Shown piece after piece: positions 9,205-25,817 of a DNA stretch of 31,970 nt. The DNA is from a virus. A program made the translations under genes and the position numbers. The stretch lies in IMG/VR virus record IMGVR_UViG_3300034072_000868, positions 1 to 31,970 of that record, one strand, 5' to 3'. The notes below the pieces were generated by a model, which worked only from the letters and a program-made list of their open reading frames with translations, ran no database searches and was not told the DNA's origin. Positions within the stretch are counted from its first letter, which is position 1. Every line of letters begins with the position of its first letter.

Positions 9205-10053
9205 ATGGCACTCGTAAAACCGCAAGTAGCTCAGAAAGAAGAAACCCTGGCCGCTGAAGCCGTAGCCCAGACCGCCGAGCAGGTGGTTGAGCAGGAAGTA
9301 GTGGCCGAGCAGGCACCGGTCGAGACCGGCGAAGTGCTGGAGGCTGAAGGCGTAGAAGCCACTGCCGCCACCGCAGAGGTGGTTGAGATCCAGCCCGCTG
9401 CCGAGCCCGCCCAGGCTGTAGCCGTCGCTGAACCCGCAGCAGCCAAGGCCGTAACGGTCGGCGAGCAGCGCACTAACGCCATGGCACAGTTCACCCAGGA
9501 TCAGGCCGCAAACGGCTTCGAGGGCCTGGAGCTGAGCGGCATGTCCTTCGACCGCATCAAGCTGCACGAAGGTCAGTTCAAGCTGGGCACCGAGGAGACT
9601 GAGCTGGGTACCGACATCCAGGTCGTGATCCACAGCACCCGCAAGATCTTCGTGGTGCGCCAGAGCGACGACAACGACGCCGAGACCTTCTACTCCTACG
9701 ACCCGAAGGGCCTGACCTTCACCGACGGCAGCTCGGCGCAGGAGAAGCTGGAAGACTGGCTGGACGACGGCTACGGCACCGAGGAGAGCCCGCTCGACAT
9801 CCGCGAGTACCTGGAGGCCATGGCCACCCTGGTCAACCGCGAAGACGAGCATGAAGGCACCATGGTGATGCTGAGCATCCCGCCGGCCTCGAAAGCCCGT
9901 CTGGCAGGCGTAGCTGCCCAGGCCTACACCCGCTTCAAGGGTGCCACCTTGGGCCAGGTCGTCACCCAGTGCTCCGTAGGCAAGAAGATCGGCGAAGGCC
10001 AGAAAGCCTTCCGTCCGTGGGTCTTCAAAGCCCTGGAGCGCTTCGAGGGCTGA
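9205..10053 (+). CDS. Uncharacterised 282-residue protein; candidate ssDNA-binding protein
   Basis: Residues 1 to about 90 are a low-complexity Ala/Glu/Val-rich stretch. From about residue 100 a compact, beta-rich domain starts (GFEGLELSGMSFDRIKLHEG), including FVVRQSDDNDAETFYSYDP and ending in RPWVFKALERFEG. I recall similar proteins in replication regions of other phages, without assigned function. The gene has its own upstream element (copy C), a good ribosome site (GAGG before the ATG at 9205), and the strongest terminator in the window, so it is a single, highly expressed unit. That is how a phage single-strand binding protein would be organised, and no other gene here fits that role. 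The call is inference; a scaffold or replication accessory protein is also possible. Confidence 0.82.
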   Translation: MALVKPQVAQKEETLAAEAVAQTAEQVVEQEVVAEQAPVETGEVLEAEGVEATAATAEVVEIQPAAEPAQAVAVAEPAAAKAVTVGEQRTNAMAQFTQDQAANGFEGLELSGMSFDRIKLHEGQFKLGTEETELGTDIQVVIHSTRKIFVVRQSDDNDAETFYSYDPKGLTFTDGSSAQEKLEDWLDDGYGTEESPLDIREYLEAMATLVNREDEHEGTMVMLSIPPASKARLAGVAAQAYTRFKGATLGQVVTQCSVGKKIGEGQKAFRPWVFKALERFEG

Positions 10054-10070
10054 CAGCCTTCCTACCCAAA

Positions 10071-10098
10071 AGGACCCGGCGATGCCGGGTCCTTTTTT
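10071..10098 (+). terminator. Strong Rho-independent terminator
   Basis: AGGACCCGGC (10071-10080), loop GAT, and GCCGGGTCCT (10084-10093) form a perfect ten-base stem followed by TTTTTT and then CT. It closes the transcript of the candidate ssDNA-binding gene 18 bases after its stop codon. Confidence 0.95.
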
Positions 10099-17470: not shown

Positions 17471-17502
17471 CCCATATTTACAGCAGTATGGGCAACCATA
17501 AA
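17471..17502 (+). promoter_or_regulatory. Bipartite phage element, copy D
   Basis: TTTACA (17477-17482) is followed after 14 bases by CATAAA (17497-17502). The first part lies in a separate inverted repeat, CCCATA (17471-17476) with TATGGG (17487-17492). The ligase ribosome site AGGAG (17504-17508) directly follows, and the ATG is at 17515. This is the shortest distance to a start codon, so CATAAA cannot be an ordinary -10 box with the transcript beginning downstream. Confidence 0.6.
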
Positions 17503-17514
17503 CAGGAGCACTCA

Positions 17515-18639
17515 ATGCAAGTCCTGAAGGAAATCACCCTCTACAAGAACCACGACGGCCAGATCGGAGATTGGCTGATCAAAGCCGTTAGCCTGGAGCC
17601 GCACCTCGAGGGTGGCGCCGCGCAGCTGCAGATCAGCCACACCAAAGTGGTCGGCGGCAAGGCTGTGACCAAGATCGTTCCGGTTGAAGGAAAGAACGCC
17701 GGTCGAGCGAACGAGACCTCGCCCTGCACTCAGGCCGTCCTGGAGCTGGACAGCCGCGTCAACAAGCAGATCGACAAGGGCTACGTCCGCAACATCGACG
17801 ACGCTTCGGCGCCGGCAACCAACGCCCTAGGTCTGCAGAAGCCAATGCTGGCCCACCCGATCGACAAGGTGAAGCCGGACAGCATCGACTGGGACGACGC
17901 ATTCGGCCAACCGAAGCTCGACGGACACCGCTGCCTGGTGAACGGGATCATGTACAGCCGCAACGGCAAGGAGATCCTGCTGCCGCATATCCGCGACTTC
18001 CTGGGCGACCACGGCCTGGTCGACAAGAAGCTGGACGGCGAGCTCTACGTGCACGGCCAGCTGCTGCAGGACATCGGCTCGCTGATCAAGAAGCCCCGCG
18101 AAGAGTCGCTGCAGCTGCAGTATCACGTCTATGACGTGATCAGCGACGCGCCGTACGCAGATCGCCATGCCTGGCTGGCCGACGTAATGAGCGGCGCCCT
18201 GGCCGCCAACGACTCCCCTATCCGACTGGTTCCCGCCGTCCGGGTGGCCAGCCGCGACGCGCTGACCCAGCTGCACAAGGCGTGGCTGGATGCCGGCTAT
18301 GAGGGCTCAATGCTGCGCCACGGCCGCACCGGATACCAGGCCGACAAGCGCAGCGGGTCGCTGCTCAAGGTGAAGGACTTCGAGGACATCGAGGCCACTG
18401 TGGTCGACGTGGAGCGTGGTACGCCGAACGGCAGTTTCGAGGTCCCCGTCTGGATCCTGCAGCTGCCCAACGGAAACCGCTTCAAGGCCACCGCCCACGG
18501 CGACATGCACCAGAAGCATGCCCAGTGGGAGCTGCGCCACACCTACATCGGCCGTCAGCTGACGGTGCAGATCTTCGGCTACAGCAAGGACGGCATCCCG
18601 CTGCTCCCGGTAGCCCTTCGTTGGAGGGAGGACATCTGA
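17515..18639 (+). CDS. ATP-dependent DNA ligase
   Basis: The 374-residue protein has nucleotidyltransferase motif I QPKLDGHR with catalytic Lys134, then SRNGKE (Ia), LDGELYVH (III), YEGSMLR (IV) and LLKVKDF (V). These show an ATP-dependent ligase that seals nicks. The ligase core begins near residue 110. The first 110 residues form an extra domain (MQVLKEITLYKNHDG to KQIDKGYVRN) that resembles the WGR-like module found before some ligases and PARPs and probably binds DNA ends. The longer frame from 17488 is rejected because AGGAG sits six bases before the ATG at 17515. The next gene begins in its stop (TGATG). It seals lagging-strand and repair nicks for this phage. Confidence 0.94.
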   Translation: MQVLKEITLYKNHDGQIGDWLIKAVSLEPHLEGGAAQLQISHTKVVGGKAVTKIVPVEGKNAGRANETSPCTQAVLELDSRVNKQIDKGYVRNIDDASAPATNALGLQKPMLAHPIDKVKPDSIDWDDAFGQPKLDGHRCLVNGIMYSRNGKEILLPHIRDFLGDHGLVDKKLDGELYVHGQLLQDIGSLIKKPREESLQLQYHVYDVISDAPYADRHAWLADVMSGALAANDSPIRLVPAVRVASRDALTQLHKAWLDAGYEGSMLRHGRTGYQADKRSGSLLKVKDFEDIEATVVDVERGTPNGSFEVPVWILQLPNGNRFKATAHGDMHQKHAQWELRHTYIGRQLTVQIFGYSKDGIPLLPVALRWREDI

Positions 18640-19055
18640 TGAAAGACGCGAAAAGAACGGGCCTGACGGTGATTGTGGGCGTGCTCGCCCTGCTGATCTT
18701 CACGCTGGGCAGCTGGGTATGGCTCTACGGCACTGCGGAGATCCGCGGCCGGGTAGGCGCAGAGGTCAAGCTGGAGTCGGCGGATAGTCGCATTGCCAAC
18801 TACGACCACTTCTACGACCTCTGTGCCGCGGTGCAGGGCTACGAGCATGCGCTCTTGTCGCAGCGGTCAGCCCTGGCCGCCGGGATCAGCGCCGATCGCG
18901 CCTACACCAACATGGCCGGCATCACCGCGCAGCGTGCTCGGGCCATCGCCCAGTACAACGCCGACGCCAACAAGTCCTATACCAAAGCCCGCTTCCTGGG
19001 TGACACCCTGCCTCGCCGTCTCGACGTGAACCTGGAGAACACGCAATGCAACTGA
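18639..19055 (+). CDS. Single-pass membrane protein with periplasmic-type domain
   Basis: The 138-residue protein begins with a basic tip MKDAKRTG and one hydrophobic segment (about residues 9-31, TVIVGVLALLIFTLGSWVWL). The rest is soluble, with a helical repeat-free domain including RIANYDHFYDLCAAVQGYE and QRARAIAQYNADANKSY. I recall proteins with the same YDHFYDLC and AQYNADA patterns in several other phages, also unassigned. The start ATG overlaps the ligase stop (TGATG) and the frame upstream is the ligase in another phase. It is the first of four small envelope or unknown genes. Superinfection exclusion or an envelope anchor for replication are guesses from context. Confidence 0.85.
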   Translation: MKDAKRTGLTVIVGVLALLIFTLGSWVWLYGTAEIRGRVGAEVKLESADSRIANYDHFYDLCAAVQGYEHALLSQRSALAAGISADRAYTNMAGITAQRARAIAQYNADANKSYTKARFLGDTLPRRLDVNLENTQCN

Positions 19056-19564
19056 TCGCCCGCATCTTTATCGCGCTGTGCATGGCGCTGTCGCTGACGG
19101 CCTGCAAGGTCGAGGGCTCGTCCCGCGACCAGAACATGAAGGCCCAGCAGTCGCTGATGGCACGAGCCACGGCGGCGGTGCCGGTACCGCAGATCAACAA
19201 CTTCCTGGCCCGCGAGGCGGTGGCCAAGCAGGTCAGAAGACTCGACGAGAAGGGCAAGCTGTTCTACGTGTACATCCTCGGCCAGAACGGCCAGCAGGTT
19301 GGCTACTACGTGTCGAACACCCGTCCGGTCAGCACCTGCGCCCTGCTGACGCCTGCCCAGGAGGTCATGCACTACAACAGCGGAGCCACCGCGGTGCTTG
19401 GCACTCCCAGCCTCGGTGGTGTCTACGGGTTCGGCGGCGGCTGTAACAGCCACTTCTTTTTCGACGCAGCCACCGACGCCTACGTGGAGATCAGCGGGCT
19501 GCCCTTCTTCGTGGCAGACCAGCCGCTGGCCGTGGACGCGGCGCCGATCAAGGTGAGTCGATGA
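19046..19564 (+). CDS. Phage-encoded lipoprotein (172 residues)
   Basis: The N-terminus MQLIARIFIALCMALSLTAC is a lipoprotein signal peptide with lipobox LTAC, the mature protein starting at Cys20. The mature domain has a conserved-looking pattern VPVPQINNFLAREAVAKQ, then KLFYVYILGQNGQQVGYYVSN, then PVSTCALLTPAQEV, and a glycine-rich segment. I recall similar lipoproteins in other phages and prophages, without known function. Residue after the cysteine is Lys, so outer-membrane sorting is expected. The gene overlaps the membrane protein by 10 bases and the next gene by four. Blocking receptors of incoming related phages is a reasonable hypothesis for a phage lipoprotein. Confidence 0.88.
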   Translation: MQLIARIFIALCMALSLTACKVEGSSRDQNMKAQQSLMARATAAVPVPQINNFLAREAVAKQVRRLDEKGKLFYVYILGQNGQQVGYYVSNTRPVSTCALLTPAQEVMHYNSGATAVLGTPSLGGVYGFGGGCNSHFFFDAATDAYVEISGLPFFVADQPLAVDAAPIKVSR

Positions 19565-19812
19565 CCGAGCGCCTAGCCAAGCTGCTGGGCTACATGACTG
19601 AAGCCGAGGCCAAGCGCCTCGGCTTCAGTCATCACGGCCTGTACTACGGAATCCCGTTCTGGGTCAGGGACCCCTACGGCGTGTTCGAGGCGGGACCCAA
19701 GTGGGCCGTGCTGGAACCAGTGGTAACCCTGTTCCACCACATCGAAGGCATCTGCAACCACCTGCTTAACAGGCCGCCGAGCTTCCTGTTTCAGATCAGG
19801 GAGATCGAATGA
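19561..19812 (+). CDS. Uncharacterised 83-residue protein
   Basis: The ATG at 19561 overlaps the lipoprotein stop (ATGA), and the end overlaps the next gene by four bases, so this is a coupled member of the same string. The protein starts MTERLAKLLGYMTEAEAKRLGFSHHG and has the aromatic block YYGIPFWV, then VTLFHHIEGICNHLL, which could be a short amphipathic or interfacial helix. No cleavable signal is visible. It may be a peripheral membrane or cytoplasmic partner of its neighbours. I know no function for it. Confidence 0.78.
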   Translation: MTERLAKLLGYMTEAEAKRLGFSHHGLYYGIPFWVRDPYGVFEAGPKWAVLEPVVTLFHHIEGICNHLLNRPPSFLFQIREIE

Positions 19813-20027
19813 ACACCCAAGAGCTGATAGCCACTGTCTTTGGCCTTGTCGTGGGGGCAGTTGTGCTGTGCACGCCGGCCGCCTGCACAGCGAACCGACA
19901 CATCCAAATATCGGCCGCCATACAGGCAGGTGCCGACCCCATCGAAACCAAATGCGCCATCGAAGGAGGCTCTAGTCAGTCTCCGGTCTGCATAGTCGCC
20001 GCCGCCCGTAAGGAGCCCCGGAAATGA
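19809..20027 (+). CDS. Small envelope protein, possible lipoprotein (72 residues)
   Basis: The N-terminal hydrophobic stretch (about residues 8-26, IATVFGLVVGAVVLCTPAAC) is either a membrane anchor or a signal peptide; Cys21 or Cys26 could be lipidated, though PAAC is a poor lipobox. The rest has two further cysteines (KCAIEGG and VCIVAA) that could form a disulphide in the periplasm. It overlaps genes on both sides by four bases. It closes the envelope block before the SbcD-like gene. Confidence 0.72.
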   Translation: MNTQELIATVFGLVVGAVVLCTPAACTANRHIQISAAIQAGADPIETKCAIEGGSSQSPVCIVAAARKEPRK

Positions 20028-21073
20028 CTCAGTACACCCTGTTCACCGACCCCCACCTCGGCACCCGCCGTGCAGCTCACACCACTCGAGAGTCTGCCAA
20101 GAAGCTGACCCAGGCCCTCTTCGATCAGGCGCTGACGATCGCAGAGAATGGCTACAACCCCATTTGCCTTGGAGACCTGTTCGACCGCGCCTGCAACGAG
20201 GAGGCTATCTTGGTACAGGGGTTCCAAGTATCCAGTAACTGCCTCTGGACGCTGGCCGGCAACCACGACAGCACCAACCGCGAAGGCACCGTCACTTCCC
20301 TGGATGCCTTGAAGGCCTTGCACTGCCCCATAGTGTCTTCCCCTGACTTGTCGACCCCTTACCACCTGTACCTTGGCGACGGCATTTTCATGGTCCCGCA
20401 CCACGCATCCCAGGAGCTGTTCGAGACAGCTCTGTTCCATGCCGCCGAACATGCAGCCCACGACCGGGGCGGCAAGGCATCGGTGCTGATGCTGCACTGC
20501 AACTACGACGCCCCTGATTTCATGCAGGTAGAGGACGACACCCTCAACCTGTCCGCCGAGGTCGCCGAGCGCCTGCTCAACGCCTTCGACTACATCCTAC
20601 TGGGCCACGAGCACCGACCAGCCACCTTCTTCGACGGCCGGGTTGTGATCCTGGGGAACACTCACCCCACCAGCTTCTCGGACATCAGCGACAAGTTCAG
20701 CTACGTCCTGGACATCGGCGACGGCCATGTGAGCATCGAGCCGGAGCTGATCTGGAGCCAGGAGCGCGGCTTCCGCGAGATCCGCTACGGCGACCCGGTT
20801 CCTGACCTATCCGGTGTGCAGTTCGTGTCGGTGTTCGGGATCGCAGAGGCTGAGCAGTCTGTGGCGGTGGCCGATTTCGTGCAGGAGGTCTGGTCTGCCG
20901 GCGCCGACCTGCTGGCCGTTCGCAACAACGTGATGATCGGGCAAGCGTTCAACGAGGTACAGGAGCCCGGTGAGTCCAAGCTGGGCGACCTGAAGACCCA
21001 CATAGCCGCTGAGCTGCAGGGTACCGATCTGGCGGACCTGTTCTCGACGCTGGCGGCGGAGGTATCGGCGTGA
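20024..21073 (+). CDS. SbcD/Mre11-like metallophosphoesterase nuclease subunit
   Basis: The 349-residue protein carries the calcineurin-like phosphoesterase motifs in order: TDPHLG (Asp9, His11), GDLFDR (50-55), GNHD (79-82), LMLHCNYD (His158), and GHEH (194-197). That is the full two-metal site of SbcD, Mre11 and T4 gp47. With the SbcC-like ATPase encoded at 21643 it would form a complex that processes DNA ends and hairpins, used in phage recombination and possibly host DNA degradation. It is linked to its neighbours by four-base overlaps on both sides. Two small genes lie between it and sbcC, unlike the direct sbcD-sbcC pair in bacteria. Confidence 0.93.
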   Translation: MTQYTLFTDPHLGTRRAAHTTRESAKKLTQALFDQALTIAENGYNPICLGDLFDRACNEEAILVQGFQVSSNCLWTLAGNHDSTNREGTVTSLDALKALHCPIVSSPDLSTPYHLYLGDGIFMVPHHASQELFETALFHAAEHAAHDRGGKASVLMLHCNYDAPDFMQVEDDTLNLSAEVAERLLNAFDYILLGHEHRPATFFDGRVVILGNTHPTSFSDISDKFSYVLDIGDGHVSIEPELIWSQERGFREIRYGDPVPDLSGVQFVSVFGIAEAEQSVAVADFVQEVWSAGADLLAVRNNVMIGQAFNEVQEPGESKLGDLKTHIAAELQGTDLADLFSTLAAEVSA

Positions 21074-21420
21074 GAAGCGACCAGTTCTCCGTAGGTAAAA
21101 AGGTCCTGGTAACTACCGACAACTGGTTCTTCGCCCCTGATGGCCGCCAGTACAGGGCGGCCTGGGGTACGGTGCAGGCCATCGAGACCGACGAGAAGAC
21201 CCTGGGCGTTCGCACCAACGCCCGATCGACAAACTGGTACCTGCAGATCGGCGGCCTGGTGGTCGCCGGCTGCCAGATCCATTACGCCGTGGCCTGCGAG
21301 ACGTGCGAGACAGGCAGCGTGGTGGACTGGAAAGAAGTCGACGGCGCCGTGACCAAGTTCATCCGCCCATCCAACGTCTACAACGCTGACGGAGGTCTCG
21401 ATGGGACTCAACGACTGTAA
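21070..21420 (+). CDS. Uncharacterised 116-residue protein, GTG start
   Basis: The GTG at 21070 overlaps the SbcD-like stop (GTGA). The protein begins RSDQFSVGKKVLVTTDNWFFAPDG and reads as a small beta-rich fold, with WGTVQAIETDEKTLGV resembling an SH3-like barrel. A pair of cysteines, CETCETG (about residues 77-83), might bind metal with others. No family is assigned. It is coupled to SbcCD genes and might modulate the complex or bind DNA. Confidence 0.78.
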   Translation: MRSDQFSVGKKVLVTTDNWFFAPDGRQYRAAWGTVQAIETDEKTLGVRTNARSTNWYLQIGGLVVAGCQIHYAVACETCETGSVVDWKEVDGAVTKFIRPSNVYNADGGLDGTQRL

Positions 21421-21640
21421 CTGTGGGGCTTACCGCGGTCAGCACGAACTCGGCGCAGGAGCCTGCTTCCGAGAGCCCTGCTCGCCGCCGGTGATGCTTG
21501 GTGACGACCTTTGGCAGGTCGACGGTGGTACCCCGATAAACACATTCACTCTGACCCAGACCTGGCTGTACCGGGCCCACGAAGACGGCACATGGAGCCG
21601 TCCGCGCCGGCCAGTCAGCGAACCCACTTTGCGAGGATGA
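21401..21640 (+). CDS. Uncharacterised 79-residue protein
   Basis: The ATG at 21401 is preceded by GGAGG at a good distance inside the previous gene, which it overlaps by 20 bases. The sequence has an N-terminal cysteine cluster (CNCGAYRG, ACFREPC) that could hold one zinc ion, followed by DLWQVDGGTPINTF and an arginine/proline-rich tail. No family is recognised. Its stop codon (TGA 21638-21640) lies three bases before the SbcC-like start, so expression is coupled. Confidence 0.72.
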   Translation: MGLNDCNCGAYRGQHELGAGACFREPCSPPVMLGDDLWQVDGGTPINTFTLTQTWLYRAHEDGTWSRPRRPVSEPTLRG

Positions 21641-21642
21641 CC

Positions 21643-23844
21643 ATGCAACTGATCAAGCTCGTCGCCAAGAACTTCAAGAAGCTCAGCGACTTCACCGCCA
21701 ATTTCACCGACGGCCTGAACGTCATCGTCGGCGAAAACGCCCAGGGCAAGTCCACACTGCTGCAGGCCATCGAGGCCGCGCTGTTCGGCGTCACTGTGGT
21801 GCCAGGCAAGAAAGAGAACATCCCCACCTGGGGCCAGACCAACTTCAGCTTGGAACTGCACTTCCACGCCGAGGGCAGCGTCTACGTCCTCACCCGCAGC
21901 AAGTCTACGGCCAAGCTGTTCTGCTACGACATGGACAACAACGAGCTGCTGGTGGCCAACGGCAACACCCCGGTGACAGCCTACATCGAGGAGCTGCTGG
22001 GCCTGACCGCCAAGGACTTCAACCTGTTCGTACAGTCCAAGCAAGGTGAGACCTCGGGCGTGCTGACCTTCGGCGCCACTGCGTTGAACCAGAAGGTCGA
22101 AGAGTACGCCGGCGTCAGTCTGATCGACGACGTGGCCAAGCGTGCCAACGAGGTGGCCACCGAGCAGCGTGCAGTCGTTGCCGCCCACGAAGTGGATCCC
22201 GAGGACCTTGAGGCAGCCCGCGCCGACAAGGCTGATGCCGACACCCGCCTGGTCGCCGCCGAGAAGAAGTTCGCCGGCGCCGAGAAGGGCCTGCAGGGCC
22301 TGCCAGCGTTCACCGCCACCTGTCCGGAGCCGAGCAGCCAGCAACTGACCGAGCAGCGCCGCAAGGCAGATAAGCGCGCCGAGGAACTGAAGGAGGCGCA
22401 GGCTGACGTGGCCCTGAAGAAGCAGGCCGTCGAGTCTGCGTTCCAGGCCCAACAGGCAGCCGGCGAGCTGGTGGACATCGAGCAGCTCGATGCCGACAAG
22501 AAGACTGCCAGCGAGCTGGTCCGGCGCCGCCGCGCAGACCTGAACGTCCTCAGCGTCGAGAAGATGGAGGCCCAGGCCGCCGTTAAGGCGCTGGAGAAGG
22601 CACAGGAAGCGTTCACAGTAGCCGAGCAGTCCATGGAGGTGGGGGCAGTAGATCGCCTCACCAGCGCTGTCGCAGATGCGCAGGCTGAGCACACTGCTGC
22701 CGGCGAAAGTGTCGCCGTGCTGTACTCGCGCCACCAGGACATGAGCAAGATGGTTGACGGGGCCACCTGCCCCACCTGCGGTAACAATCTCAGCGACCAC
22801 GATCCGGTCAAGCTGGAGAACGAGTTCATCGAGCTCACGAACCAGCTGGAAGCAGCGCGCCGGCTCAAGGTCGAGGCCAAGAAGAAGCTCGACAGCCTGC
22901 AGGCCAGTCTGGACAAGCACACCGCCACAGAGCTGGCGTTCACCCGCGCCGGCGACGCCCTGGAGAAGGCCCAGACTGCGGTTGATGCGATTCGCGTAGC
23001 GCTGGACGACGAGCTGGAAGGCGCCACCGCGCTGCTGGCCGACGCTGATGCCGCTCTGGCTACTGTGAACGTCAAGCTGCAGGGGGCCGAGGAAGCCAAC
23101 GACAACGTGCGGGCCTACCGCCGCCGGTTTGCTAAGGCCGAGCGGGAGCTCGAGGAAGCTGAGGACCTGGTGTCCGACCTGGAAGCTGCACAGCTGCCGC
23201 GTCCGACCGATGTGGAGATCGACGCCACAGCCCAGGCAGAAGCTGCTTTCCGCGAAGCACAGAGTGGGTACGAACGAAGCAAGTCTACCCTGGAGTCCGC
23301 CGTGGTTCTGGCCCGAGCCGAGCTGCACAGTGCCCGCAACGTCTCCGGCTATGCAGATGCAGAGCTTTCCCGCCTGGAGGAGGCCGCTGAGAAAGGTCGG
23401 CTGGCCCGCGAGATGATGGACAAGGCCTCCCGTCTGGCCCGGTTCCTCCGCGACCGCCGGCAGGCATACCTGCAGGAGATCTGGCAAGCCGTCATGGGCG
23501 CCGCCTCGCGTCAGGTGGCCACCGCATCTCGTGGCCTGATCACCAGGATCGCCAACAACGACGGTGAGTTCACCTTCGAGGAAGACGGCGTCGTGGCCCC
23601 GGTGGCCAGTGCGTCCGGCGCCCAGAAGGCGTTCATCGGCAGCGCGGTGCGCATCGGCCTGGCCCGTACCCTGTACGGCCGCGACAGCCTGCTGATCTTC
23701 GACGAGCCCACCGAGTCCATGAGCGAGCGTAACGCCTCTGGCCTGGCGGCCTCCCTTGCCGGCGCAGCCAGCCAGCTGCTGCTGATCACCCACCGCGAGC
23801 AGGACCAGGGCCTGGCCGCGAACATCGTCCAAGTAGGAGCGTAA
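21643..23844 (+). CDS. SbcC/Rad50-like SMC-type ATPase
   Basis: The 733-residue protein has an N-terminal Walker A GENAQGKST (30-38), two long coiled-coil arms, a zinc-hook CPTC (Cys376, Cys379) exactly midway, and a C-terminal signature region ASGAQKAFIG, Walker B LLIFDEPTE (Asp687, Glu688) and LLITH. This is the Rad50/SbcC/T4 gp46 layout; arms are shorter than in E. coli SbcC (1048 residues). The open frame extends to 21511, but the ATG at 21643, with GAGGA five bases upstream, is the better start (an ATG at 21637 is possible). It works with the SbcD-like nuclease on DNA ends. Confidence 0.94.
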   Translation: MQLIKLVAKNFKKLSDFTANFTDGLNVIVGENAQGKSTLLQAIEAALFGVTVVPGKKENIPTWGQTNFSLELHFHAEGSVYVLTRSKSTAKLFCYDMDNNELLVANGNTPVTAYIEELLGLTAKDFNLFVQSKQGETSGVLTFGATALNQKVEEYAGVSLIDDVAKRANEVATEQRAVVAAHEVDPEDLEAARADKADADTRLVAAEKKFAGAEKGLQGLPAFTATCPEPSSQQLTEQRRKADKRAEELKEAQADVALKKQAVESAFQAQQAAGELVDIEQLDADKKTASELVRRRRADLNVLSVEKMEAQAAVKALEKAQEAFTVAEQSMEVGAVDRLTSAVADAQAEHTAAGESVAVLYSRHQDMSKMVDGATCPTCGNNLSDHDPVKLENEFIELTNQLEAARRLKVEAKKKLDSLQASLDKHTATELAFTRAGDALEKAQTAVDAIRVALDDELEGATALLADADAALATVNVKLQGAEEANDNVRAYRRRFAKAERELEEAEDLVSDLEAAQLPRPTDVEIDATAQAEAAFREAQSGYERSKSTLESAVVLARAELHSARNVSGYADAELSRLEEAAEKGRLAREMMDKASRLARFLRDRRQAYLQEIWQAVMGAASRQVATASRGLITRIANNDGEFTFEEDGVVAPVASASGAQKAFIGSAVRIGLARTLYGRDSLLIFDEPTESMSERNASGLAASLAGAASQLLLITHREQDQGLAANIVQVGA

Positions 23845-23846
23845 CG

Positions 23847-24068
23847 ATGCACACCTGCCCAGCCTGCGGACACTCGTCCGCACCTGCGGTTCACCTCAAC
23901 CGGGCCGGCGACCTGCCGCCGGTTAACTGCCCACTCCTCATAAACGTGAACGGCGAGCTCTTGAGAGCTCGCCGCACAGGTTTCATCGAGGGTAAGGACC
24001 GGCAGATGGAGTACGAGACGCCAGAAGGCGAGATACTCCTAGGCCGGTTCGAGTGGACTTACCCCTGA
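23847..24068 (+). CDS. Small CxxC protein, last gene of the rightward unit
   Basis: The 73-residue product begins MHTCPACGHSS, a CxxC motif that could bind zinc in a dimer, since no second pair is visible except Cys29. A conserved-looking end ETPEGEILLGRFEWTYP follows. The start is two bases after the SbcC-like stop with GGAG upstream. The coding sequence contains a perfect ten-base hairpin (23951-23974). Its last ten bases overlap the end of the convergent membrane-protein gene. No function assigned. Confidence 0.75.
   Translation: MHTCPACGHSSAPAVHLNRAGDLPPVNCPLLINVNGELLRARRTGFIEGKDRQMEYETPEGEILLGRFEWTYP
23951..23974. promoter_or_regulatory. Perfect 10-base hairpin within the last rightward gene
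   Basis: CGGCGAGCTC (23951-23960), loop TTGA, and GAGCTCGCCG (23965-23974) are perfectly complementary. It encodes amino acids (GELLRARR region), but the arm symmetry exceeds coding need. There is no T-run, so it is a candidate RNA structure, attenuator or 3' end-stabilising element rather than a classical terminator. Confidence 0.5.
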
Positions 24069-24415
24069 TCTTCCTTCTCGGCCGGCGGTGTCTTTCCGCC
24101 GGCCAACCCCTGCAGAAGTGCAGGCACCATCTTCTTGGAGTGGCTGACGATCAGCTCAAAGCCCTTCATGCCTGTGGCACCCACCAACAAGACCAGGGCA
24201 TCCCTATTGCCCCAGTCGGATGGGATCAGCTGCCCAAACACCATCCCCATGTAGAACCCCACCATTGCGGTGACGAACAGCATCAGGACGGACAGAGCCT
24301 CTCCGTTCCGCCTGGCAACCTGGTACAGGTAGCCTACCAGCGCAGCGAATGCGCCGAGCAGGCCGAAGTACACAAACGCCTCGAACTTCTCAACCCAACC
24401 GAGCGTTGTCTTCAC
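24059..24415 (-). CDS. Holin-like membrane protein, three membrane segments
   Basis: The 118-residue protein has three hydrophobic stretches: FEAFVYFGLLGAFAALVGYL (about residues 11-30), SVLMLFVTAMVGFYMGMVFG (42-61) and ALVLLVGATGMKGFELIV (73-90), then a charged tail. This resembles LydA/class I-type phage holins that permit endolysin release. It is last in a leftward lysis string behind endolysin and Rz/Rz1. It overlaps the neighbouring membrane protein by 26 bases. Which of the two is the holin and which the antiholin cannot be decided. Confidence 0.83.
   Translation of the reverse strand: MKTTLGWVEKFEAFVYFGLLGAFAALVGYLYQVARRNGEALSVLMLFVTAMVGFYMGMVFGQLIPSDWGNRDALVLLVGATGMKGFELIVSHSKKMVPALLQGLAGGKTPPAEKEDQG
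24080..24104. terminator. GC-rich inverted repeat at the convergent junction
   Basis: GGCCGGCGG (24080-24088) and CCGCCGGCC (24096-24104) pair around a seven-base loop. It lies 12 bases past the end of the last rightward gene and inside the 3' end of the leftward membrane-protein gene. Neither strand has a T-run after it, so termination in both directions is possible but weak. No better terminator is visible between the two opposing units. Confidence 0.45.
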
Positions 24416-24722
24416 GGGCGTCCTTAGTAATCAGGTCCAGGATCAGCCAGTAGGCCATGCAGTTGCTAAGGACAAACATCTGAAACACCCGGATCGACAG
24501 CAGGGTCTTCCCGTAGACCTCCAGGGCGTAGAAGTTCGCCGCCATGAAGGTCAGGGTGCACACTGTCATCAGCATCAGAATTGCCGCGAGGCGTGCCTCC
24601 TGCTGCCTGTCCTTGACCCGGAACACGCGCTTCCAGACCACGAACAGCTTAACCAGGAGGGCCGAGTACAGGAGGAACGGCACCGCGGAAATGAACAAGT
24701 CGAACACTTGCTGGTAGGACAT
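24390..24722 (-). CDS. Second small membrane protein, holin/antiholin candidate
   Basis: The 110-residue product has three hydrophobic segments: FISAVPFLLYSALLVKLFVV (residues about 9-28), LAAILMLMTVCTLTFMAANF and VFQMFVLSNCMAYWLILDLI, with a basic loop RVFRVKDRQQEAR between the first two. A GTG at 24728 would overlap the endolysin stop, but ATG 24722 has GAGG seven bases before it and is preferred. Its position between endolysin and the other membrane protein suggests a holin or antiholin. No family match is claimed. Confidence 0.8.
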   Translation of the reverse strand: MSYQQVFDLFISAVPFLLYSALLVKLFVVWKRVFRVKDRQQEARLAAILMLMTVCTLTFMAANFYALEVYGKTLLSIRVFQMFVLSNCMAYWLILDLITKDAREDNARLG

Positions 24723-24724
24723 GG

Positions 24725-25207
24725 TCACGCCTCAGTTACCGAAACTTGGGCGGGCTTCAACACCGGCAGCGGCCCAGTCTGCAGGAGGATCTCCTCCGGG
24801 TACCGGTAACCGGTAACTCGGCTCACTTGGAACGCTCGGATGTTCACCTCGTCGGACTGGTTGCCGCCCAGGACCAGAAGATTGCCTTTCTCGTCCCGGC
24901 CCACCGCGAAGCCGACGTGGCCACCGCCGTCGCGGGAGAACACCACCACGCAGCCTACGACTGGATCCACCAGGGTGCGGCCCCACTGCAGGTAGGACTT
25001 CGCGCTCTCGAATCGGGTCGACCGGACCCCACTCCGCTCCAGCATCGCCCCGACGAACGCCGCACACCACGGTGTCTCGTCGTCCTTGATCCCGCCGCGC
25101 TTGATGTCCTTCCACATCTGCAGGATCTCCGCCTGGTGGCTAGGTCCTTTAAGCTCGGACAGACCTATATGCTTCCTGGCCTCTACCAGCCAGCTGGGTT
25201 CTTTCAT
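24725..25207 (-). CDS. CHAP/NlpC-type endolysin (TIGR02594-like)
   Basis: The 160-residue protein shows the cysteine-peptidase pattern of phage CHAP-like hydrolases: WCAAFVGAML with the catalytic Cys, then GCVVVFSRDGGGHVGFAVG with the His, then LVLGGNQSDEVNI. The order and lengths resemble the TIGR02594 family, common in phage lysis genes. It would cut peptidoglycan peptide bridges at lysis. There is no signal peptide, so release depends on the adjacent holin-like proteins. It overlaps the Rz1-type gene by four bases at its start. Confidence 0.88.
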   Translation of the reverse strand: MKEPSWLVEARKHIGLSELKGPSHQAEILQMWKDIKRGGIKDDETPWCAAFVGAMLERSGVRSTRFESAKSYLQWGRTLVDPVVGCVVVFSRDGGGHVGFAVGRDEKGNLLVLGGNQSDEVNIRAFQVSRVTGYRYPEEILLQTGPLPVLKPAQVSVTEA

Positions 25208-25506
25208 TGCGGGGCTCCTTCACTCGCCCACTCGCGCCACGCTTCATCGCGGGTATGCAGCGTTCGCAGGAGAGTCTTCAGGTGGTTGAGGTCTTGCTTG
25301 GAGAGTGCCGCCGCAGCATCCGGCGACTTAGGAGAAATGAAGCGAGGTAGCGGGGACGGCCTGTACTCCGCGGAAAGCTCAGCTGGCGGGCGGCGCGGCA
25401 CTTCGACAGGAACCAGAACCTCTACCGGGCGGTAGACGACCACCTGCTCAGGTGAGGTGCAGCCGGCGGCCAACACGATCAGTAGGAGAACAGTGAGTCG
25501 AGCCAC
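25204..25506 (-). CDS. Rz1-type outer-membrane spanin lipoprotein
   Basis: The 100-residue protein starts MARLTVLLLIVLAAGC, a lipoprotein signal with lipobox LAAGC, and then has a proline-rich part (VPVEVPRRPP) as typical of o-spanins. Its start lies inside the 3' end of the Rz-type gene (overlap 28 bases), the characteristic Rz/Rz1 overlap. It would span the periplasm with the i-spanin and fuse inner and outer membranes after endolysin action. It is longer than lambda Rz1 (60 residues), with extra helical C-terminus. Confidence 0.87.
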   Translation of the reverse strand: MARLTVLLLIVLAAGCTSPEQVVVYRPVEVLVPVEVPRRPPAELSAEYRPSPLPRFISPKSPDAAAALSKQDLNHLKTLLRTLHTRDEAWREWASEGAPQ

Positions 25507-25817
25507 TTGTTCATCTCCTCTGGCTGGGTGCTGCTCTGGTGGTCTGTCGCTAGCTTGGCTGGCAGGGTCGCCAGCTTCTGGGTTGCGCGGCCGGCGGCCT
25601 GAAGAGCTTCTGAACTCAGCCGGCTCTTCAGTCCGGTGACCGCTGCGTTCTGCCTGTCGACGGAGGCTTTGAGCGCCAGACTGTCCTCGGACAGACGCCG
25701 AACCTGTGACTGACTGCCGGAAAGCAGCACGCTTATGGCCTCTGCCCGCTGATGCTCGCTAAGCGCAAGTAGCAGGGCGGAGGCCGCCAGCAAATAGGGA
25801 AGGATTCTTGAGAGCAT
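25479..25817 (-). CDS. Rz-type inner-membrane spanin
   Basis: The 112-residue protein begins with a membrane segment (MLSRILPYLLAASALLLAL, residues 1-19), followed by a long helical, coiled-coil-forming periplasmic part (VRRLSEDSLALKASVDRQNAAVTGLKSRL). That is the i-spanin layout. The overlap with the Rz1-type frame supports this. The CAT complement at 25815-25817 is the start. A partial element-like sequence lies 35 bases upstream (25852-25866). Confidence 0.85.
   Translation of the reverse strand: MLSRILPYLLAASALLLALSEHQRAEAISVLLSGSQSQVRRLSEDSLALKASVDRQNAAVTGLKSRLSSEALQAAGRATQKLATLPAKLATDHQSSTQPEEMNKWLDSLFSY

What the first reader, a model, noticed from the sequence alone, without database searches (positions are those of the whole stretch)
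18639..20027. Block of four envelope or unknown genes inserted between ligase and SbcCD
A one-pass membrane protein, a lipoprotein with clear LTAC lipobox, an 83-residue unknown and a small cysteine-containing envelope protein are coupled by overlaps and interrupt a DNA-metabolism operon. Early expression of envelope proteins suits superinfection exclusion.
Basis: inference. Interest (0 to 1): 0.55.

Follow-up and report, generated by a model that had tools for sequence, protein, structure and literature searches.

The report
Paired membrane genes in phage operon
Between two DNA-repair genes this phage carries a widely travelled pair of genes for a membrane-anchored protein and a lipoprotein, found side by side in phages of very different bacteria, which may guard the cell envelope during infection; its job is still unknown.

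Summary
The four genes are real and placed as described, but they are not one unit. (1) o1+o2 (18639-19564) is an undescribed two-gene module: o1 an inner-membrane helical hairpin, o2 a lipoprotein modelled with an SH3-like barrel resembling YgdI/YgdR lipoproteins. In 75 of 78 distinct o2 genes a membrane-protein gene of matching design lies next to it or one tandem copy away, in phages of Gram-negative and Gram-positive bacteria, phage-plasmids, prophages and a haloarchaeal plasmid. (2) o3 (19561-19812) is a PHROG 6519 protein without a membrane segment; it carries an exceptional perfect 17-bp hairpin. (3) o4 (19809-20027) belongs to the operon: in nearly all close relatives the ligase-SbcD gap codes for tiny one-pass membrane proteins, usually overlapping sbcD by 4 nt. 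Insertion is confirmed: Pseudomonas phage PMBT3 has 50 bp and no gene in the gap. Superinfection exclusion at the cytoplasmic membrane is the likeliest single function of o1/o2 (about 0.35), but nothing here tested it. Spanin membership is rejected: the pair occurs in phages of hosts without an outer membrane, and this phage has its own Rz/Rz1-like pair.

The parts
17488..18639 (+). ATP-dependent DNA ligase, left flank of the slot
   Evidence: PHROG 114 E 3.8e-71; Pfam DNA_ligase_A_M E 3.7e-13
18639..19055 (+). o1: one-pass membrane protein with a predicted extracytoplasmic helical hairpin; partner of o2
   Evidence: hydropathy 2.39; AlphaFold2 model pLDDT 87.4, helices 2-45, 48-80, 85-111; homologues adjacent to o2
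19046..19564 (+). o2: lipoprotein (lipobox LTAC, Cys20) with helical stalk and SH3-like barrel (residues 70-161)
   Evidence: lipobox read from sequence; model pLDDT 81.1; five best structural matches are small bacterial lipoproteins or proteins of that type including E. coli YgdR, Z 5.2-6.4
19561..19812 (+). o3: 83-aa protein of PHROG 6519, no membrane segment; relatives sit beside endolysin in Pseudomonas phages
   Evidence: PHROG 6519 E 1.5e-9; tblastn 46 phage records; contexts
19594..19632 (+). perfect 17-bp inverted repeat with 5-nt loop inside o3 (RNA hairpin)
   Evidence: dG -39.7 kcal/mol, 0 of 200 shuffles as stable; 0 of 20,000 synonymous resamplings exceed 14 bp
19809..20027 (+). 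o4: 72-aa one-pass membrane protein with two Cys in its C-terminal part; occupant of the position abutting sbcD
   Evidence: hydropathy 2.31; homologue 41% identical in the same position in L112; distant relatives in Pseudomonas phages nickie, ZY21, phiK7B1 and Pantoea phage G19
20024..21073 (+). SbcD-like nuclease, right flank of the slot
   Evidence: PHROG 100 E 4.2e-22; relatives in Pseudomonas and Vibrio phages
21640..23844 (+). SbcC-like subunit
   Evidence: PHROG 28217 E 9.1e-149
24059..25817 (-). the phage's own lysis cassette: two holin-like membrane proteins, endolysin, Rz1-like lipoprotein (25204-25506) and Rz-like membrane protein (25479-25817)
   Evidence: endolysin PHROG 9589 E 4.7e-9, best hit PHROG 1259 tail lysozyme E 4.8e-45; sequences and hydropathy; holin and Rz/Rz1 names are inferred from topology, no family match

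Best explanation
The gap between ligase and sbcD is a standing slot for membrane proteins in this phage family. In this phage a mobile two-gene envelope module (o1+o2), followed by o3, was inserted there, ahead of the resident small membrane gene o4. o1 (N-in, one membrane helix, outer helical hairpin) and o2 (lipid-anchored SH3-like barrel) most likely form one complex on the outer face of the cytoplasmic membrane. The likeliest use is to block or control entry of further phage DNA there (superinfection exclusion) during the time of DNA replication. Shown: gene anatomy, lipobox, pairing, slot. Inferred: complex formation, topology, timing, function.
For: Pairing: 75 of 78 distinct o2 genes have a membrane partner near by: 40 with o1 upstream (one of these with a tandem o2 copy between), 1 with o1 directly downstream, 34 with a second-type membrane partner directly downstream. 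In bacterial genome contigs 28 of 31 recognised o2 ORFs have the partner directly downstream. Neighbours otherwise differ between the phage lineages inspected, as for a cargo cassette. The pair occurs in phages of Gram-negative hosts (Xanthomonas, Klebsiella, Salicola) and Gram-positive hosts (Arthrobacter, Curtobacterium, Microbacterium, Streptomyces) and in a haloarchaeal plasmid, so the shared site of action is the cytoplasmic membrane. Slot: one search finds 24 of 31 slot ORFs hydrophobic against 2 of 51 between sbcD and sbcC and 1 of 77 after sbcC. Known exclusion lipoproteins act in comparable places: Ltp tethered outside the cytoplasmic membrane blocks DNA injection (PMC3952083, passages); Llp and Cor are small exclusion lipoproteins, Cor acting early after infection (PMC9586334, PMC13164509, passages).
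Against: No sequence match to any exclusion or defence family. In prophages read by eye (Streptococcus suis, S. plurextorum, Enterococcus innesii) the pair lies among early replication-type genes and not in a lysogeny module, where ltp lies. o2 is strongly conserved (mean column identity 61% among nine Firmicutes-type members), which suits a conserved cellular target better than a variable phage target. Three Saccharibacteria contigs carry the pair beside housekeeping genes. No expression data.
Confidence: 0.35

Rival explanations
1. o1/o2 acts on a conserved host component of the cytoplasmic membrane (secretion, energy coupling or cell-wall synthesis) to keep the infected cell intact or to take it over, and exclusion of other phages is not its purpose.
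For: Strong conservation of the o2 core across phyla; presence in jumbo phages, phage-plasmids, prophages and Saccharibacteria contigs; the nearest structural matches are resident bacterial lipoproteins.
Against: No target is known; the YgdI/YgdR-like match is moderate (Z 5.2-6.4) and shows no function.
Confidence: 0.3
2. o1/o2 is a second two-component spanin or another lysis or lysis-timing device (inner-membrane coiled coil plus lipoprotein, genes in i-spanin/o-spanin order and overlapping).
For: Architecture matches the two-component spanin definition (PMC6139136, passages): inner-membrane helical protein followed by an overlapping lipoprotein gene.
Against: The pair occurs in phages of Gram-positive hosts and in an archaeal plasmid, which have no outer membrane; this phage has an endolysin with its own Rz/Rz1-like pair on the other strand; it lies in a DNA-metabolism operon.
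Confidence: 0.08
3. The slot's tiny membrane proteins, o4 here, work with the translationally coupled SbcD, for example by tethering SbcCD or the replicating DNA to the membrane. (This concerns o4 and is not exclusive with the readings of o1/o2.)
For: A hydrophobic ORF overlaps the sbcD start by 4 nt in 12 of 19 loci by the automatic count, and one abuts sbcD also in L112, L115 and L117 when ORFs are read by hand; codon positions 1/2/3 differ 125/71/185 and 84/60/132 in two groups, as expected of genes.
Against: PMBT3 has none; UAntarctica has none abutting sbcD; sequences of the small proteins differ between subgroups; the distant L123/L124 have non-membrane genes there; o4 relatives in other phages lie next to helicase, primase or exonuclease genes and not sbcD.
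Confidence: 0.12
4. The slot simply tolerates passing genes; the membrane character of its content has no functional meaning for the operon.
For: Phages vary widely in slot content; PMBT3 does without.
Against: Membrane ORFs are concentrated in this gap and almost absent from the equally variable sbcD-sbcC gap (24 of 31 against 2 of 51).
Confidence: 0.15

Closest known systems
YgdI/YgdR-type bacterial lipoproteins (E. coli YgdR 3fif; 2rd1, 2rb6, 2ra2, 2k57)
   Same: Small SH3-like lipoprotein fold; the only five chains with Z of 5 or more to the o2 model
   Different: No Pfam match of o2 at E up to 1; o2 has an N-terminal helical stalk and insertions, is phage-borne and is paired with a membrane protein
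Ltp superinfection-exclusion lipoprotein of Streptococcus phage TP-J34
   Same: Phage lipoprotein that spreads between phages and acts outside the cytoplasmic membrane (PMC3952083, passages)
   Different: Ltp lies in the lysogeny module; no membrane partner is mentioned in the passages read; not found as a relative in any search here
Llp (T5) and Cor (T1) exclusion lipoproteins
   Same: Phage lipoproteins of the envelope; the T1-type cor locus has two upstream genes for a membrane-associated and an outer-membrane protein (PMC13164509, passages)
   Different: Llp and Cor are small lipoproteins that block an outer-membrane receptor, and llp lies next to the receptor-binding protein gene (PMC9586334, passages); o2 also serves phages of hosts without an outer membrane
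Two-component spanins (Rz/Rz1)
   Same: Inner-membrane helical protein plus lipoprotein, adjacent or overlapping genes
   Different: Present in phages of monoderm hosts; separate lysis cassette in this phage; not in the lysis region
Ligase-SbcCD region of Pseudomonas phages Lana, PMBT3 and UAntarctica
   Same: Same gene order on both sides of the slot
   Different: Slot there is empty (PMBT3) or holds other short genes, none related to o1-o3

Membership tests
Two-component spanin | inner-membrane i-spanin plus lipoprotein o-spanin from adjacent genes | tested here: met
   o1 membrane helix plus helical hairpin, o2 lipobox, 10-nt overlap
Two-component spanin | outer membrane as target, so confined to phages of Gram-negative hosts | tested here: not met
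   o1+o2 adjacent in Arthrobacter, Curtobacterium and Microbacterium phages; both present in Streptomyces phage Zuko
Two-component spanin | the phage's spanin sits with the lysis genes | tested here: not met
   own endolysin and Rz/Rz1-like pair at 24725-25817 on the minus strand
Superinfection exclusion protein | expression blocks infection by a second phage | not testable with these tools
   needs a plating and DNA-entry assay
Ltp family | lipoprotein exported to the outer face of the cytoplasmic membrane | tested here: inconclusive
   lipobox present; sorting in a Gram-negative host is unknown
Ltp family | gene in the lysogeny module | tested here: not met
   lies between ligase and sbcD; prophage copies read by eye also lie among early genes
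Llp/Cor | gene next to the receptor-binding or tail genes | tested here: not met
   neighbours are ligase and sbcD; feature taken from T5 llp, the cor locus was not compared
YgdI/YgdR lipoprotein family | match to the Pfam model of the family (PF06004, number recalled) | tested here: not met
   no Pfam match of o2 at E up to 1; 18 members scanned, none to this model
YgdI/YgdR lipoprotein family | SH3-like barrel fold of these lipoproteins | tested here: inconclusive
   top five of 997 chains, Z 5.2-6.4, rmsd 2.0-3.0, 51-54 residues; Foldseek itself gave no match at E below 0.001 in PDB
PHROG 6519 (o3) | profile match | tested here: met
   E 1.5e-9, 38.9 bits, residues 9-80 of 83
SbcCD (flank) | SbcD and SbcC profile matches | tested here: met

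The most novel reading that the evidence does not exclude
o1/o2 is a general, undescribed two-protein membrane system, used by phages of bacteria with and without an outer membrane and by an archaeal element, and kept in some Saccharibacteria chromosomes. It acts on a conserved part of the cytoplasmic membrane, such as the route of DNA entry. In this phage family the ligase-SbcD gap is a dedicated address for such membrane functions.
Probability: 0.3. Interest if true: 0.75.

Novelty: new variant of a known kind. Interest (0 to 1): 0.5.

Why it matters
A gene pair kept together across phages of such different hosts marks a common step of infection that none of the family libraries searched names. 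If it controls DNA entry or protects the infected cell's membrane, it gives a compact, testable handle on both. The finding that relatives reserve the ligase-SbcD gap for tiny membrane proteins also raises the testable question whether phage SbcCD works at the membrane.

Tried and rejected
Family searches of o1-o4 in Pfam, NCBIfam and PADLOC gave nothing of use; PHROGs gave only o3 and a weak match of one of 18 o2 members to an unknown family. PDB sequence search with o1 and o2 profiles gave chance-level hits. Foldseek of o2 against PDB gave no match at E below 0.001. The o1 structural matches are generic helical bundles, best Z 8.2, and were not used. In the viral structure library o2 and o1 each have one match below E 0.001: A0A248SKC2 for o2 (no name shown) and a Microbacterium phage Floof protein for o1; among the next for o2, at E 0.009-0.2, are small phage proteins, three of them named lipoprotein.

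The second-type partner (Firmicutes-like) as a true homologue of o1 is only suggested: hhalign probability 12-47, score 21.8 against a column-shuffle mean of 10.3 (maximum 19.1, 0 of 150 reach it), reversed control 12.1; the aligned part is 34 columns and not the C-terminal motif seen by eye. An earlier comparison with a contaminated partner alignment gave probability 0.3. An SbcD homology of the exonuclease next to the o4 relative in Pantoea phage G19 was checked and rejected. Conservation of the o3 hairpin was rejected: two Pseudomonas phage homologues lack it. GC-rich hairpins of 7-10 bp in the slot of eight relatives (20 entries examined) are at other places and have no null test. The first genome scan with the Gram-negative type found 112 pattern matches and no relative.

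Rows dropped: in the family survey 15 of 99 held loci (repeat copies and loci fetched for other genes) were left out, and identical o2 C-termini were merged to 78. In the slot count L103, L106, L119, L120 (copies or near-copies), L113 (contig edge) and the distant L123-L126 were left out of the 19. The automatic ORF choice picked wrong frames in L112 and L117; hand-read ORFs there are. In the genome scan o2 was recognised in 31 ORFs for 37 loci. Family E-values come from iterated profiles that contain the hits; the first, un-iterated pass found the same numbers, 86 and 44 ORFs.

Papers: five read as passages only (PMC13164509, PMC3952083, PMC9586334, PMC8421299, PMC6139136); all others seen only as search listings. 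That the pair is undescribed rests on searches and the family scans, so it is not exhaustive.
Full report
What is there. The four ORFs are present at the stated coordinates, on one strand, overlapping by 1 to 10 nt with each other and with the genes on either side. Each has a purine-rich stretch upstream of its start. o1 has one strong membrane helix, o2 a signal peptide with the lipobox LTAC, o4 one membrane helix and two cysteines in its C-terminal part; o3 has no membrane segment. Ligase and SbcD flank the block, SbcC follows. The window is a virus record of 31970 bases with no held completeness estimate; a longer copy of the same phage (37957 bases) is in IMG/VR.

Is it an insertion? Yes. 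The order polymerase, exonuclease, dNMP kinase, resolvase, ligase, slot, sbcD, variable genes, sbcC is shared with Pseudomonas phages UAntarctica, PMBT3 and Lana and with viral contigs found by an SbcD scan that returned 24 loci. The slot is 50 bp without an ORF in PMBT3, 180 bp with one 44-aa ORF in UAntarctica, 572 bp in Lana and 1384 bp here. Apart from L103, the copy of this phage, no relative's slot holds o1, o2 or o3 by tblastn at E up to 0.001.

The slot is a place for membrane proteins. Over 19 loci, ORFs of 30 aa or more were called by rule: 24 of 31 slot ORFs are hydrophobic (best 19-residue mean 1.6 or more), against 2 of 51 ORFs between sbcD and sbcC and 1 of 77 after sbcC. In 12 of the 19 a hydrophobic ORF overlaps the sbcD start by 4 nt; in L112, L115 and L117 reading by hand shows an abutting one as well. 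Codon-position differences (125/71/185 and 84/60/132 over positions 1/2/3) support that these 32-42-aa ORFs are genes. o4 holds this position in the window, and L112 has an o4 homologue (41% identical) in the same place. So o4 is a resident and o1-o3 are additional. Limits: PMBT3 has no slot gene, UAntarctica none abutting sbcD, and the distant L123/L124 carry non-membrane genes there. o4 relatives elsewhere lie beside replicative helicase and primase genes (nickie, ZY21) or before an exonuclease that is not SbcD (Pantoea phage G19).

o1 and o2 are a pair. tblastn with o2 finds 30 phage records at E up to 1, of Xanthomonas, Klebsiella, Serratia, Salicola, Rhizobium, Streptomyces, Curtobacterium, Microbacterium and Fusobacterium; o1 finds 17 records. 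Viral-contig scans returned 5, 20, 43 and 2 loci, the first of them the copy of this phage. In 78 distinct o2 genes, 40 have o1 upstream (in one a tandem second o2 lies between), 1 has o1 directly downstream, and 34 have a second-type membrane partner directly downstream; in 2 o1 is 2.3-2.8 kb away, and in 1 none was found in the stretch held (families). All 44 o1 and all 40 partner ORFs have a hydrophobic segment. The partner resembles o1 in size and layout, but homology is only suggested. The archaeal case is Natrinema pallidum plasmid pNPA200, where an o1-type ORF directly precedes the lipoprotein. A lipobox by a relaxed pattern was seen in 62 of 78 and by a strict pattern in 33 of 78; over-extended starts lower this count, and the aligned cysteine is invariant in the 18-member alignment.

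Structure. The o2 model (54 sequences, pLDDT 81.1) has a signal helix, two further helices and a beta barrel from residue 70. Among 997 chains the five with Z of 5 or more (5.2-6.4, rmsd 2.0-3.0 over 51-54 residues) include a putative lipoprotein of Pseudomonas syringae and E. coli YgdR; the next, Hfq, has 4.2. The tool warns that Z below 8 may mean only a common arrangement, and Foldseek itself had no match below E 0.001. That 2rd1, 2rb6 and 2ra2 belong to the YgdI/YgdR group is recalled. The o1 model (28 sequences, pLDDT 87.4) is a long helix and a helical hairpin.

Distribution in genomes. A scan of genome contigs with the Firmicutes-type o2 gave 37 loci in Clostridia, Bacilli, Leptotrichia, Saccharibacteria and other MAGs. 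28 of 31 recognised o2 ORFs have the partner directly downstream. In Streptococcus suis, S. plurextorum and Enterococcus innesii the pair lies among early phage-type genes, read by eye. In three Saccharibacteria contigs it stands beside EF-G and EF-Tu, thioredoxin reductase and triosephosphate isomerase, or bL25 and UvrA, read by eye from translations. Misassembly is not excluded.

How it may work. The pair serves hosts with and without an outer membrane, so the shared place is the cytoplasmic membrane. A lipid-anchored barrel beside a membrane-anchored helical hairpin suggests a two-part complex on the outer face. Blocking DNA entry there would suit an early gene and a mobile cassette, and Ltp shows that a phage lipoprotein can do this (PMC3952083, passages). 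Against it stand the high conservation of o2, its place outside the lysogeny module, and the Saccharibacteria copies. I therefore give exclusion 0.35 and a conserved host target 0.3. The spanin reading fits the architecture (PMC6139136, passages) but not the distribution or the presence of the phage's own lysis genes.

o3 and the hairpin. o3 belongs to PHROG 6519. tblastn finds 46 phage records; most of the 30 listed, all Pseudomonas phages, have an endolysin gene under the edge of the match, and in two records inspected it follows the endolysin or lies close behind the lysozyme gene. In the window it carries a perfect 17-bp inverted repeat with a 5-nt loop, the longest in the window. Synonymous resampling of residues 9-28 never exceeded 14 bp in 20,000 draws, and resampling of 23 window genes gave at most 10 bp in 12 rounds. 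The strand folds at -39.7 kcal/mol. Two homologues lack it. A templated repair of an imperfect palindrome is a possible origin; a role in the transcript is also possible. Neither was tested.

Verdict. A correct observation with a partly right interpretation. The pair is undescribed in the searched libraries and papers, and the membrane-protein slot is a feature of this phage family that I did not find described, but function is inferred.

Noticed in passing
19594-19632: Perfect 17-bp inverted repeat with a 5-nt loop inside the coding part of o3, far beyond what codon choice would give, in the operon of SbcCD, a hairpin nuclease.
   Followed up: partly
L114 5848-5868, L116 5850-5867, L117 5848-5867, L118 5835-5855, L121 5853-5870, L122 5967-5986, L102 4851-4873: Relatives of the Lana group carry a short GC-rich hairpin (GGGGCAGC-type) just upstream of the small membrane gene or of sbcD; no null test done.
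   Followed up: partly
L140 7992-8902, L148 8001-8903, L163 8004-8909: Three Saccharibacteria contigs carry the lipoprotein-partner pair beside housekeeping genes with no phage genes seen next to it.
   Followed up: partly
L018 2884-3863: Microbacterium phage Big4 has two tandem copies of the lipoprotein gene behind one o1 gene.
   Followed up: no
10068-10096: 13-bp hairpin with 3-nt loop followed by a T run after the gene ending at 10053, a good candidate terminator.
   Followed up: no
24059-25817: Lysis cassette on the minus strand in the order Rz-like, Rz1-like, endolysin, two holin-like membrane proteins; the endolysin's best PHROG is a baseplate hub/tail lysozyme.
   Followed up: partly
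21070-21420: 116-aa protein of PHROG 22562 between sbcD and sbcC, kept in many but not all relatives.
   Followed up: no
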